From Sphingobacteriaceae bacterium (GTDB lineage Bacteria > Bacteroidota > Bacteroidia > Sphingobacteriales > Sphingobacteriaceae): a stretch of 53,453 nt of DNA. Shown here piece by piece: positions 45,716 to 53,453 of the stretch (position 1 is the first letter of the stretch; each line of letters begins with the position of its first letter). The stretch covers positions 1 through 53,453 of the forward strand of contig JAHEGO010000003.1 in the NCBI GenBank assembly GCA_024645045.1. Direction: 5' to 3'. The notes beneath the pieces are model-generated. The model was not told where the DNA came from. It searched no databases and saw only the letters and a program-made list of their open reading frames with translations. The position numbers and the translations under genes are program-made.

Positions 45716-46473
45716 TGGCGATGAACAAAAAATATTTTAAAACAATACTATTTGTTTTAGCTGCTTTTAGCTTAGTAGCTTGTAGTAAGCAACTAATTTT
45801 AAAGGAAACTAAAATCACGCAACAATCCATTTCGGAAAAGCTTTTTGCTGATACTGCTATTATTTCGTTTTACGCACCGTATAAAAAATCTTTAGACTCA
45901 CAAATGAATGTAGTGGTGGGTTCTTCGGCCATTGCATTGAGTAAAAATAGTCCAGATAATAATTTAAGTATATTTTTTGCGGATGCCGTAGCTGCTGCTT
46001 GCAAAAACAAAAATGCAATTTTTGATTTTGCTTTTCCAACTACTAATGGCGGGATTAGAAACTCCATGCCTCAAGGCGATTGGACTTTACGCAATATGTA
46101 TGAGTTAATGCCATTCGAAAATGAATGTGTTTTGTTAACCATATCTGGAAAAAAAATAAATGAACTGGTTCGTTTTGTGCTGAGCAAAGGCGGGCAACCA
46201 TTAGCAGGAATTACCATTCAATCAAAACCATCAACAGAAACCCTTGTTAAAATTGCTGGATTGCCAGTAGATACCAATCGCAATTATGTGGTGTTAACCT
46301 CCGATTATTTAGCCAATGGAGGAGATGGAATTACTGCATTTGCTAATCCAATTAATAAAAGCAATTTGAATTATAAAATCAGAGATGCATTAATTGATTA
46401 TGTGTTATCTCAGAAAGCAATAGGAAAAACTATTAAACCAACCATCGATGGAAGAATTAGGATCGACCAATAG
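45715..46473 (+). CDS. lipoprotein with 5'-nucleotidase C-terminal domain
   Basis: A 252-aa lipoprotein: hydrophobic signal and lipobox LVAC with Cys23. The rest matches only the C-terminal, substrate-specificity domain of UshA/CD73-type 5'-nucleotidases. NGGIR sits in FPTTNGGIRNSMPQGDWT, and the end segment is SDYLANGGDGITAF. The catalytic metallophosphatase domain is missing from this protein and encoded by the very next gene, in reversed order relative to the fused enzyme. The mutase stop overlaps its start by one base, and its 3' end overlaps the phosphatase gene by 26 bp. The two products probably work together on extracytoplasmic nucleotides. Confidence 0.87.
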   Translation: MAMNKKYFKTILFVLAAFSLVACSKQLILKETKITQQSISEKLFADTAIISFYAPYKKSLDSQMNVVVGSSAIALSKNSPDNNLSIFFADAVAAACKNKNAIFDFAFPTTNGGIRNSMPQGDWTLRNMYELMPFENECVLLTISGKKINELVRFVLSKGGQPLAGITIQSKPSTETLVKIAGLPVDTNRNYVVLTSDYLANGGDGITAFANPINKSNLNYKIRDALIDYVLSQKAIGKTIKPTIDGRIRIDQ

Positions 46474-47410
46474 ACGAACCTTTATTAAGTCACTTTCTGC
46501 AGCAGCCGCACTTTTTGCTGTTGGAGCGAATCCTTTTGCTGCGCAAGCAAAAAAATCGATTACAAAGCTTACCATTTTACATACAAACGATGTGCACAGT
46601 CGCATTGATCCTTTTCCTGCGGATGGTTCTAGAAATGCAGGTTTGGGTGGAGTTGCAAGAAGGGCGACCTTAATTAAACAAATTAGAGCGGAAGAGGAAC
46701 ATGTTTTATTATTAGATGCTGGTGATATTTTTCAAGGAACCCCTTATTTTAATTTATATGGTGGTGAACTGGAAATTAAATTGATGTCGAAGTTGGGTTA
46801 TGATGCCGCAACTATTGGAAATCATGATTTTGACTGCGGAATAGCAGGTTTTGAAAAGCAACTCAAACACGCAAGTTTTCCATTCCTAATTGCAAACTAT
46901 GATTTTAAGGATACCATCTTAAATGGCAAAACGCAGCCATATAAGGTCTTTCACAAAGGCGACTTAAAAATTGGGGTATTTGGTTTAGGAATTGAACTAG
47001 AAGGCCTAGTAGAAGCCAGAAACTACGGACAAACGCAATATTTGAATCCTATAACGGTTGCAAATCAAGTGGCCCATCAATTAAAACACGATATGCAATG
47101 TGATTTGGTTATTTGCCTTTCGCATTTAGGATATGCGTATAAAGACAATAAAGTATCAGACAAGGTTTTAGCAGATCAAACGGCAGGAATCGACTTGATC
47201 ATTGGAGCGCATACGCATACGTTCATGACGGCTCCAGAAATACGCAAAAACAGCCTTGGAGAGGAAGTAAGGATCTTTCAAGTTGGGTTTGCAGGGATTA
47301 ACTTGGGTCGAATAGATTATTTCTTTGAATTAGGAAAGAAAAAGAAACAAGCCATCGGTTCGGCAATGCGTATTGACCAAGAATTGCTTGACGATTTTGA
47401 AATTGCCTAA
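46448..47410 (+). CDS. Tat-exported metallophosphatase (5'-nucleotidase N-terminal domain)
   Basis: A 320-aa calcineurin-like phosphatase corresponding to the catalytic half of UshA-type nucleotidases. Metal-site motifs are all present: ILHTNDVHSRI, LLDAGDIFQGTPYF, TIGNHDFDCG, CLSHLGY and IIGAHTHTF. The N-terminus has a twin-arginine signal, NRRTFIKSL, before a hydrophobic segment ending ANPFAAQA, so the protein is likely exported folded with its metals. It starts inside the preceding lipoprotein gene, which supplies the separate nucleotide-specificity domain. After the stop comes the long non-coding region before dnaA. With no C-terminal domain of its own, activity probably depends on the partner. 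Confidence 0.9.
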   Translation: MEELGSTNRRTFIKSLSAAAALFAVGANPFAAQAKKSITKLTILHTNDVHSRIDPFPADGSRNAGLGGVARRATLIKQIRAEEEHVLLLDAGDIFQGTPYFNLYGGELEIKLMSKLGYDAATIGNHDFDCGIAGFEKQLKHASFPFLIANYDFKDTILNGKTQPYKVFHKGDLKIGVFGLGIELEGLVEARNYGQTQYLNPITVANQVAHQLKHDMQCDLVICLSHLGYAYKDNKVSDKVLADQTAGIDLIIGAHTHTFMTAPEIRKNSLGEEVRIFQVGFAGINLGRIDYFFELGKKKKQAIGSAMRIDQELLDDFEIA

Positions 47411-47785
47411 TTGAAGAAATAAATAAATTCATTTTCAGTCACTTATAAATGACTTTTTAAGAGCTGAAAATGGGAATTGATAAGTAAAAATAATTGATAT
47501 TTTTGATTAGTTTTTGATTGTCAATCAATTATAGCCGGCATCTCGAAAAGCCTTGACTAGAAAGGCTTTCATCCAGTTACAAAAAAATACTCGAATTAAA
47601 TAATTTTAATTTTTTTTATTTTTTTTTCGAGCAAAAAATGCCTTCTTGCTATTGAAAATCAACTTTGGAAAAAACAAATTTTTTTTTTATTTTTTTGTTA
47701 AGAAATAAATGCAAATATTCGTAAACCCAAATGGAAAATCTGTTTTCCATAGGAATATTTAGATAATAATTTTCGAATAATAACA
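47411..47785 (+). promoter_or_regulatory. 375-bp non-coding region before dnaA with several inverted repeats
   Basis: No gene is visible here. Seen: GTCACTTATAAATGAC, a near-perfect palindrome at 47438-47453, nested in flanking ATTTTCAG (47431-47438) and CTGAAAAT (47464-47471) arms; TTGATTG-T-CAATCAA at 47514-47528; AAAGCCTT-N7-AAGGCTTT at 47547-47569; ATGGAAAA-TCTG-TTTTCCAT at 47731-47750; and long T tracts around 47607-47628 and 47681-47699. TATTTTTG (47498-47505) with TTG at 47477-47479 (18-bp spacer) is a possible promoter, which would give a leader of about 270 bases. Perfect DnaA boxes (TTATCCACA) were not found. It may be a dnaA control region, possibly near an origin. Confidence 0.5.
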
Positions 47786-49213
47786 ATGATAGAAACTAGC
47801 ACAGCAGTATGGGAAAATTGTCTTAAGATTATCAAAGACAACGTGCCGACACAAAGCTTCAAGACTTGGTTTGAACCAATAAAGGCTTTAAAATTAGACG
47901 GAGCCGTGCTAACCATCCAAGTACCTAGTTTATTTTTCTACGAGTGGTTAGAAGAACACTACGTAAATTTATTACGTAAAACCATTAAACATGAACTTGG
48001 AGCAGATGCCCGCCTAGAATATAATATTGTAGTAGATAATGCTACTTCTAATACAAAAGCACAAACCATTAATATTCCAGCATCTCCAAATGGAGAGTTG
48101 AAAAACCCTTCGGTGCCAATTCCGGTAACTGTACCTTCTTCTATTCGTAATCCATTCGTAATTCCGGGTTTGAAGAAAATCAACATTGATAGTCAATTAA
48201 ATTCAAAATATTCATTTGATAATTTTGTTGAAGGAGATTGTAACCGTTTAGCGCGTTCAGCTGGTTTTGCTGTTGCGAATAAGCCAGGAGGCACTTCTTT
48301 TAACCCATTAATGATTTATGGTCCTACAGGTTTAGGAAAAACACATTTAGTGCATGCCATAGGTGGTGCCATTAAAGATCGTTTTCCTGAAAAACAAGTG
48401 CTATATGTAAATGCAGAGAAATTTACTCAGCAATTTGTAGAATCAATGAAAAACAATACCATCAACGATTTCAAAAACTTCTATCAATTGATCGATGTTT
48501 TGATTTTAGATGATGTACACAACTTTGCAGGAAAAGAAAAGACACAAGATATTTTCTTCCATATATTCAATGAATTGCATCAAACCAATAAACAAATTGT
48601 CTTAACTTCTGATAAACCACCAAAAGATTTAATTGGAGTAGAAGATCGTTTATTGTCTCGTTTCAAATGGGGTTTAACTGCAGATTTGCAAATTCCAGAT
48701 TTTGAAACCAGAATGGCTATTCTATATAAGAAAATGCAATTAGATGGTATTGAGTTGCCGCAAGATGTTGTAGAATACGTTGCACACAACATTGATAGCA
48801 ACATGCGTGACTTAGAAGGAGCAATGGTTTCTTTATTGGCACACTCTACCTTAAATAAAAAAGAAATTGATTTGCCATTGGCAAAACAAATGTTGAAGAA
48901 CTTCATTAAAAATTCTAGTAAAGAAATTTCAATTGAATACATTCAAAAATTAGTTTGTGAATATTTTGAAGTTCCTGTAGAATTATTGAAGTCGCAAACT
49001 AGAAAAAGAGAGATTGTTCAAGCAAGACAAATATCTATGTATTTAGCGAAGAGCCATACAAAGTCTTCTTTAAAGTCAATAGGAATGCACTTCGGAGGCA
49101 GAGATCACTCTACTGTAATTTATGCTTGTCAAACGGTTGAAGACTTAATCGATACAGATAAAAAGTTCCGTGCATATGTTGCAGACATTCAGAAAAAATT
49201 AAAATTAAGCTAA
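47786..49213 (+). CDS. dnaA: chromosomal replication initiator protein DnaA
   Basis: DnaA unwinds the origin to start replication. At 475 aa all four domains are present: helical domain I (1-~85, with WENCLKIIKDNVPTQSFKTWF), a short linker II, the AAA+ domain III with Walker A GPTGLGKT at 179-186 and Walker B VLILDDVHNF near 235-244, and the DNA-binding domain IV with the signature GGRDHSTVIYA near residue 435. The initiator-specific region and arginine finger segment LLSRFKWG are seen. The gene is flanked by the 375-bp non-coding region upstream and a strong terminator downstream, so it is probably monocistronic. dnaN and recF do not follow it, unlike many other phyla. Confidence 0.98.
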   Translation: MIETSTAVWENCLKIIKDNVPTQSFKTWFEPIKALKLDGAVLTIQVPSLFFYEWLEEHYVNLLRKTIKHELGADARLEYNIVVDNATSNTKAQTINIPASPNGELKNPSVPIPVTVPSSIRNPFVIPGLKKINIDSQLNSKYSFDNFVEGDCNRLARSAGFAVANKPGGTSFNPLMIYGPTGLGKTHLVHAIGGAIKDRFPEKQVLYVNAEKFTQQFVESMKNNTINDFKNFYQLIDVLILDDVHNFAGKEKTQDIFFHIFNELHQTNKQIVLTSDKPPKDLIGVEDRLLSRFKWGLTADLQIPDFETRMAILYKKMQLDGIELPQDVVEYVAHNIDSNMRDLEGAMVSLLAHSTLNKKEIDLPLAKQMLKNFIKNSSKEISIEYIQKLVCEYFEVPVELLKSQTRKREIVQARQISMYLAKSHTKSSLKSIGMHFGGRDHSTVIYACQTVEDLIDTDKKFRAYVADIQKKLKLS

Positions 49214-53364: not shown

Positions 53365-53453
53365 CAGTCCTTTCGGCGCAAGGCAGGGAGTGAAAGGTAA
53401 GGAGAAGAGGAAAAAATACAACGATTGCGAGGCACACAAGCGGGTTCGAGTCC

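What the first reader, a model, noticed from the sequence alone, without database searches (positions are those of the whole stretch)
47411..47785. Palindrome-rich 375-bp region upstream of dnaA
The longest non-coding stretch in the window holds four inverted repeats with 7-8 bp arms (47431-47471 nested, 47514-47528, 47547-47569, 47731-47750) plus long T tracts. None is followed by a terminator-type T-run in the right place. Several symmetric sites before a replication initiator gene suggest autoregulation, an RNA leader, or an origin-associated region that does not use the standard DnaA box.
Basis: partly seen in the sequence, partly recalled or inferred. Interest (0 to 1): 0.5.

Follow-up and report, generated by a model that had tools for sequence, protein, structure and literature searches.

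The report
Conserved hairpin starting dnaA messenger
The stretch in front of the replication-starter gene dnaA holds that gene's likely switch and, at the predicted start of its messenger RNA, a small hairpin that many relatives keep while changing its letters, which points to a way of controlling how much replication starter is made.

Summary
The inverted repeats are real: four with mixed-base arms against 0.42 expected (0 of 1000 shuffles). They are not one thing. The window is a contig of a 1.8-Mb Sphingobacteriaceae genome. The repeat nearest dnaA (47731-47750) follows a promoter-like box (47714-47721) found in 97 of 110 family loci. In 54 dereplicated leaders the arms differ between species, yet each pairs with its own partner better than with another species' (-9.69 against -6.82 kcal/mol, 0 of 20000). 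The signal peaks 44-48 nt before the start codon and has no counterpart before recA in the same 19 genomes. It is most likely a 5'-terminal mRNA hairpin; its role (mRNA lifetime, translation or DnaA feedback) is inferred. A palindrome (47514-47528) and a hairpin (47547-47569) lie in a 220-bp block conserved in the genus; the 3' arm of the first repeat (47430-47472) is not conserved. An origin here is unlikely: no DnaA boxes, no skew switch, dnaA far from the skew minimum in three relatives, and a better candidate on another contig.

The parts
47786..49213 (+). dnaA, replication initiator (475 aa)
   Evidence: Pfam Bac_DnaA 1.3e-64, Bac_DnaA_C 2e-30, DnaA_N 2.8e-19
47731..47750 (+). 5'-UTR hairpin ATGGAAAA-TCTG-TTTTCCAT of the dnaA leader; extra pairs CC/GG just outside possible
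   Evidence: own fold -7.9 kcal/mol; counterparts in family leaders with species-specific complementarity
47714..47721 (+). promoter-like -7 box AATATTCG of dnaA
   Evidence: form NA[TC][ACT]TTCG 61-77 bp before dnaA in 97 of 110 family loci, AATATTCG in 74 of the 97; resembles the TAnnTTTG -7 consensus (passages of PMC9723704)
47680..47713 (+). T-rich stretch and TTTTTTTGTTAAGAA upstream of the -7 box (upstream promoter region)
   Evidence: 100 of 100 agreements in each of 47666-47685, 47686-47705 and 47706-47725 in the genus; T tracts common in 54 family leaders
47726..47785 (+). predicted dnaA mRNA leader, about 60 nt (start inferred as 5 nt after the -7 box)
   Evidence: inference from the -12 to -5 position of the box given in PMC9723704; no RNA data
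47506..47725 (.). non-coding block under strong conservation in the genus (each of its 11 bins 82-100% identical, while four-fold sites in dnaA differ by 37-41% from this species)
47514..47528 (.). perfect 15-bp palindrome TTGATTGTCAATCAA, candidate operator
   Evidence: once in this genome; same place before dnaA in 5 of 5 genus genomes whose contig covers it
47547..47569 (.). second hairpin AAAGCCTT-GACTAGA-AAGGCTTT
   Evidence: stem identical in 6 of 6 genus loci, loop varies
47430..47472 (+). hairpin after the stop codon of the upstream gene; 5' arm kept, 3' arm not
   Evidence: 54 of 60 agreements in 47426-47445, 13 of 60 in 47466-47485
46448..47410 (+). upstream gene, metallophosphoesterase domain (5'-nucleotidase N-terminal part)
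   Evidence: Pfam Metallophos 3.5e-16; the gene before it has 5_nucleotid_C 2.2e-19

Best explanation
The 375-bp stretch is the regulatory region of dnaA. Transcription is predicted to start about 5 nt after the box at 47714-47721, so that the mRNA begins almost directly with the stem-loop at 47731-47750, followed by an A/U-rich stretch of about 35 nt to the start codon. The stem is kept by selection across Sphingobacteriaceae although its sequence changes. Most likely it protects the 5' end of the dnaA mRNA from end-dependent decay and so helps to set how much DnaA is made. Shown: position, species-specific pairing, no such signal in front of recA. Inferred: the start site, that RNA rather than DNA is the selected form, and the effect on mRNA lifetime.
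For: 54 dereplicated family leaders: own halves -9.69 against -6.82 (sd 0.32) kcal/mol swapped, 0 of 20000; strict set of 27: -9.51 against -6.37, 0 of 20000. Scan in 19 genomes (18 genera) without using the box: 5, 0, 0 and 57 of 5000 at centres -52, -48, -44 and -40; the lowest of 20 centres before recA in the same genomes is 406 of 5000. First paired base lies at the predicted +1 (median 0, range -4 to 9). Position-specific fold energy: mean z -1.03 in 53 leaders against 0.02 and -0.40 in two upstream control stretches. Promoter box conserved.
Against: RNAalifold finds no common pair on the sequence alignment of the 54 leaders; by eye the stem slides by several bases between genera, so there is no fixed structure. 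By whole-leader folding energy the signal is weak (mean z -0.49 over 70 loci, 6 below -2; this leader z -0.95, p 0.12). The sense strand is not favoured over the antisense strand (24 against 25 of 54), so RNA is not proven. Weak excesses also occur elsewhere upstream: 88-44 nt before the box 1009 of 20000, and dnaA centre -84 212 of 5000. 13 of 110 family loci lack the box form used (12 differ, one has no upstream DNA). No transcript data.
Confidence: 0.5

Rival explanations
1. The leader hairpin is a translational or signal-responsive switch on dnaA (bound by a protein, small RNA or metabolite), working like the dnaA leader of Caulobacter, rather than a plain stability element.
For: The sequence before the ATG is itself partly conserved in the family (consensus TTGnAAATCA..ATTA), so the leader holds more than a hairpin. 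In Caulobacter a 155-nt dnaA leader is needed for lower DnaA synthesis when nutrients run out (passages of PMC4489657).
Against: Stem sequence and loop vary and no common structure is found, unlike a ligand- or protein-specific fold; the hairpin ends a median of 31 nt before the ATG and does not cover it. The conserved TTGnAAATCA element is not evident in this genus.
Confidence: 0.25
2. The symmetric site acts as DNA: DnaA or another protein binds it, or it extrudes as a cruciform, to control the dnaA promoter.
For: 15 of 110 family loci have TTATNAACA 48-55 bp before dnaA, at the place of the hairpin loop, and 24 of 110 have TTATN[CA]ACA both at -170 to -177 (+) and at -88 to -94 (-) (first seen). 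The sense strand is not preferred.
Against: An operator keeps its letters, whereas the arms here change and only the pairing stays. This species has no TTATN[CA]ACA within 400 bp, no exact TTWTNCACA in 47311-47900, and two one-mismatch sites in those 590 bp, the chance level (1.28 per 375 bp).
Confidence: 0.15
3. The region is a replication origin that does not use standard DnaA boxes.
For: A/T-rich tracts, symmetric sites, strong non-coding conservation in the genus.
Against: In the window third-position skew seen on the + strand is 0.008 (+ genes) and 0.346 (- genes) left of dnaA and 0.061 and 0.259 right of it, so no switch, though only 5.7 kb lie to the right. Sampled GC skew puts the minimum at about 0.1-0.3 Mb in G033 (dnaA at 1.05), 1.4-1.7 Mb in G240 (dnaA at 3.14) and, weakly and with other sign changes, 3.2-3.4 Mb in G205 (dnaA at 2.20). 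In this genome contig C21 has a group of DnaA-box-like sites found in 6 of 6 genus genomes.
Confidence: 0.04
4. The repeats are chance products of A/T-rich DNA or leftover terminators of the upstream gene.
For: The first repeat follows a stop codon and its 3' arm is not conserved, although by eye two genus members (L002, L003) have another partner there, TTCATTTT/AAAATGAA.
Against: 4 against 0.42 expected; family-wide arm complementarity of the last repeat; no terminator-like site found in 47380-47860.
Confidence: 0.06

Closest known systems
dnaA 5' untranslated leader of Caulobacter crescentus (nutrient-dependent translation)
   Same: A leader between the dnaA promoter and start codon that is more than a spacer
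   Different: 155 nt with a Shine-Dalgarno sequence (passages of PMC4489657); here about 60 nt, opening with a hairpin; no regulation shown
5'-terminal stabilising stem-loops of bacterial mRNAs (E. coli ompA type; recalled, from no call)
   Same: Hairpin at or within a few bases of the predicted 5' end, sequence free, pairing kept
   Different: No start site or half-life measured; the hairpin is small (own fold -7.9 kcal/mol)
ArrA antisense RNA in the dnaA leader of Bacillus subtilis
   Same: Control element located in the dnaA leader (abstract of PMC12112137)
   Different: Antisense transcript; here an antisense RNA was not tested and none is claimed, though strand preference does not exclude it
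Structured 5' regions of Flavobacterium psychrophilum
   Same: Same phylum; 64 structured 5' regions, some conserved outside the species and without Rfam hits (section 19 of PMC9723704)
   Different: 'dnaA' does not occur in its main text (supplements not seen); other family

Membership tests
Cis-acting structured 5' leader of an mRNA | Base pairing kept while sequence changes | tested here: met
   Swap test; but no fixed consensus structure by RNAalifold
Cis-acting structured 5' leader of an mRNA | Element is transcribed with the gene | not testable with these tools
   No RNA data; the position after a conserved -7 box suggests it
5'-terminal stabilising stem-loop | Few or no unpaired bases before the stem at the mRNA 5' end | tested here: inconclusive
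   First paired base at predicted +1, median 0, range -4 to 9; start site itself inferred
5'-terminal stabilising stem-loop | Removal shortens mRNA half-life | not testable with these tools
   Needs an experiment
Known Rfam family | Score above a family's gathering cut-off | tested here: not met
   no match in the window at gathering; three matches with E 2.0-2.3, far below their cut-offs
Bacterial oriC of the DnaA-box type | Cluster of DnaA boxes | tested here: not met
   no exact TTWTNCACA in 47311-47900
Bacterial oriC of the DnaA-box type | At the GC-skew minimum | tested here: not met
   No switch of third-position skew at dnaA in the window; not at the minimum in three relatives; whole own genome not testable (70 contigs)
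Intrinsic terminator | G+C-rich stem followed by a T-run | tested here: not met
   0 found in 47380-47860, both strands. By eye the sister genus L008 has CCCTG..CAGGG followed by TTTTT near the place of 47547-47569
dnaA autoregulated through DnaA boxes | DnaA boxes in the dnaA promoter | tested here: not met
   Not in this species; exact TTATCCACA within 400 bp in 26 of 108 family loci with at least 100 bp upstream

The most novel reading that the evidence does not exclude
Sphingobacteriaceae control DnaA supply by a leader hairpin that is defined by shape alone: any sequence will do as long as a stem of this size opens the mRNA, in some genera with a DnaA-box-like sequence in its loop, so that DnaA binding at the DNA and the RNA hairpin together form one feedback point. 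A weak folding excess in the dnaA leaders of other Bacteroidota leaves open that it is a feature of the phylum.
Probability: 0.15. Interest if true: 0.6.

Novelty: new member of a known kind. Interest (0 to 1): 0.42.

Why it matters
My searches turned up little on how Bacteroidota set the level of DnaA, and dnaA lies far from the skew minimum in the three relatives sampled here, so the usual neighbourhood of dnaA and oriC does not explain its control. A short leader element with family-wide constraint gives a concrete, easily mutated target (a 20-bp stem-loop) in culturable Pedobacter or Mucilaginibacter, and the swap test shows one way to find shape-only elements that a sequence alignment misses.

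Tried and rejected
RNAalifold on the 54-leader alignment gave no pairs, so a fixed-structure covariance model was not built. Whole-leader folding z-scores were too blunt. Strand preference did not separate RNA from DNA or from an antisense RNA. Rfam gave nothing. The sigma-70-type scan gave 4 promoter-like sites against 2.4 expected, none of them the -7 box used here; Bacteroidota promoters are not covered by it. The plasmid search with the region found three records, all matching within dnaA. The palindrome as a regulon site: TTGATTNTCAATCAA occurs once in this genome; G004 and G005 each have one copy of TTGATTTTCAATCAA elsewhere. smc as origin marker in relatives: it lies at 2.37 Mb in G033, 1.26 Mb in G205 and 0.41 Mb in G240, not at their skew minima, so the origin candidate of this genome is not shared by position.

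For the recA control I used 20 of the 30 loci given (left out: four same-genus and six outside the family) and 19 after dropping G013, which has no dnaA upstream DNA. Outside the family 58 loci, 57 with 200 bp, 48 dereplicated.

Papers: searched for a dnaA leader or promoter in this phylum or a dnaA mRNA hairpin; three of them listed one paper each (PMC9260158, PMC4117421, PMC6927303), which I did not open; the others listed none. Only the open-licence PubMed Central library was searched. Seen: passages of PMC4489657; passages and section 19 of PMC9723704; outline and abstract of PMC12112137; all others as listings with the start of the abstract. The ompA-type stem-loop, the DnaA-box consensus and the names smc, gap, FeoA and FeoB are recalled or read by eye.

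Full report
Where it is. The window is the whole of contig C56 of a 1.83-Mb genome in 70 contigs. The dnaA gene at 47786-49213 is intact by Pfam. Its family is Sphingobacteriaceae: the best named relatives are Pedobacter, Mucilaginibacter, Parapedobacter, Sphingobacterium and unnamed Sphingobacteriaceae, and several share contig lengths with family genomes (for example 1735116 and 343519). Five further genomes belong to the same unnamed genus.

The observation. The four inverted repeats exist at the stated coordinates. Counting perfect 7-bp arms with at least two G/C, 4 are seen where 1000 dinucleotide shuffles give 0.42 on average and none reaches 4. No terminator-like site is found in 47380-47860.

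Three different things. Comparing the six genus loci: 47506-47725 is nearly invariant (each of 11 bins 82-100%), although four-fold degenerate sites of dnaA differ by 37-41% between this species and the other five. So this non-coding block is under strong purifying selection. It holds the palindrome TTGATTGTCAATCAA, which occurs once in this genome and stands before dnaA in 5 of 5 genus genomes whose contig covers the place, a hairpin whose stem is the same in 6 of 6, and the promoter. By contrast 47430-47472 keeps its 5' arm but not its 3' arm; by eye L002 and L003 have another possible partner for it. From 47726 on the sequence changes quickly (66 and 50 of 100 agreements in two 20-bp bins).

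The promoter. A box NA[TC][ACT]TTCG stands 61-77 bp before dnaA (67 in 46 of 97) in 97 of 110 family loci; 74 of the 97 have AATATTCG as here. Of the other 13, twelve have a different sequence and one has no upstream DNA; two further loci (L057, L065) gave no tblastn hit and were dropped. The box resembles the -7 box TAnnTTTG of this phylum, which lies at -12 to -5 (passages of PMC9723704). recA loci of the same genomes show boxes such as TATATTCG and TACCTTCG by eye. The mRNA should thus start near 47726.

The hairpin. Directly after the box many family leaders have an inverted repeat, but with other letters: for example CCGAAG..CTTCGG, GGTGC..GCACC, CCAAAG..CTTTGG. To test this without choosing stems, I took 54 leaders with a similarity ratio under 0.80 in the first 45 nt, cut each into two halves and compared the pairing energy of own halves with halves swapped between species. 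Own: -9.69; swapped: -6.82, sd 0.32; 0 of 20000 permutations reach it. With 27 leaders at a stricter cut: -9.51 against -6.37, 0 of 20000. The other four cuts tried also give 0 of 20000. Control segments: just upstream of the box 18169 of 20000, last 30 nt plus coding 19927, coding 19968, and 88-44 nt upstream of the box 1009 of 20000, the last a weak excess. Then, without using the box, I slid the test along the upstream region of dnaA and of recA in the same 19 genomes of 18 genera: dnaA gives 5, 0, 0 and 57 of 5000 at centres -52, -48, -44 and -40, and next lowest 212 of 5000 at -84; the lowest of 20 centres before recA is 406 of 5000. The hairpin of this window has its centre at about -45.

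What speaks against a simple story. RNAalifold finds no common pairs; by eye the stem shifts by several bases between genera. Whole-leader energies are only slightly better than shuffles (mean z -0.49 over 70 loci; this leader alone z -0.95, p 0.12); position-specific energies are better (mean z -1.03, 11 of 53 at p<0.05; controls 0.02 and -0.40). The sense strand folds no better than the antisense strand (24 against 25 of 54). So the pairing is shown, but that it acts as RNA rests on its place after the promoter: the first paired base lies at the predicted +1 (median 0) and the pairing ends a median of 31 nt before the ATG.

Mechanism. A shape-only stem at the very 5' end, clear of the start codon, fits best a protective 5' stem-loop that sets mRNA lifetime. 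A translational switch as in Caulobacter (passages of PMC4489657) is the main rival; the leader downstream of the hairpin is itself partly conserved in the family, though not evidently in this genus. DnaA feedback is a third: 24 of 110 family loci, Pedobacter among them, carry DnaA-box-like sites both at about -175 and at about -92, and 15 of 110 have TTATNAACA at the place of the hairpin loop. This species has none beyond chance.

Not the origin. In the window, third-position skew on the + strand is 0.008 in + genes and 0.346 in - genes to the left of dnaA, 0.061 and 0.259 to the right, so it does not switch there, though only 5.7 kb lie to the right. Sampled GC skew in relatives: in G033 the sign turns positive between 0.1 and 0.32 Mb while dnaA is at 1.05 Mb; in G240 between 1.38 and 1.70 Mb while dnaA is at 3.14 Mb; in G205, with weak skew and further sign changes, the cumulative minimum is at about 3.3 Mb while dnaA is at 2.20 Mb. 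In this genome TTATNCACA is rare (58, against 91 for the reversed control), and the only inverted pair within 28 bp lies on contig C21 between genes I read as smc and gap. That stretch, with 3 to 5 DnaA-box-like sites, is found in 6 of 6 genus genomes. It is a better origin candidate, though smc is not at the skew minimum in G033, G205 or G240.

Beyond the family. In 48 dereplicated dnaA upstream regions of other Bacteroidota, folding between -100 and -24 is slightly better than shuffles (mean z -0.47, p 0.005; control stretch 0.01). This is suggestive only.

Novelty. No Rfam family matches at its cut-off. Six paper searches in the open-licence library listed no paper that I could see to describe a dnaA leader hairpin in this phylum (three papers listed there were not opened). 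It is a new member of a known kind, structured 5' leaders.

Noticed in passing
G000:C21:66139-66359 (L211:740-960), outside the window: Between genes read as smc and gap: TTATCAACA, TTATTCACA, inverted TTATCCACA and inverted TTATTAACA with an A/T-rich tract; found in 6 of 6 genus genomes with 3 to 5 such sites (in three of them the first site differs). Candidate replication origin of this genus.
   Followed up: partly
L032, L036, L037, L061, L062, L070, L099, L102 at 48-55 bp before dnaA: At the place of the leader hairpin's loop stands TTATCAACA, one base off the DnaA box TTATCCACA; with any fifth base, TTATNAACA, it is 15 loci.
   Followed up: partly
24 family loci, for example L014, L041, L044, L072, L074, L075 (L072, L074, L075 are named Pedobacter): DnaA-box-like sites at two fixed distances before dnaA, about -175 (+ strand) and -92 (- strand), the second inside the promoter.
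   Followed up: partly
47586-47630: CTCGAA..TTCGAG around a nearly pure A/T tract in this species; in the other genus members the right end reads TTCGGC, so the symmetry is not kept.
   Followed up: partly
genome G000: TTATNCACA is rarer than its reversed control: 58 sites against 91.
   Followed up: no
53380-53453: The contig ends in GCGGGTTCGAGTCC, which looks like the T-arm of a cut-off tRNA gene (ARAGORN finds no tRNA in the window).
   Followed up: no
L008 (sister genus), upstream of dnaA: CCCTG..CAGGG followed by TTTTT, terminator-like, near the place of the hairpin 47547-47569.
   Followed up: no
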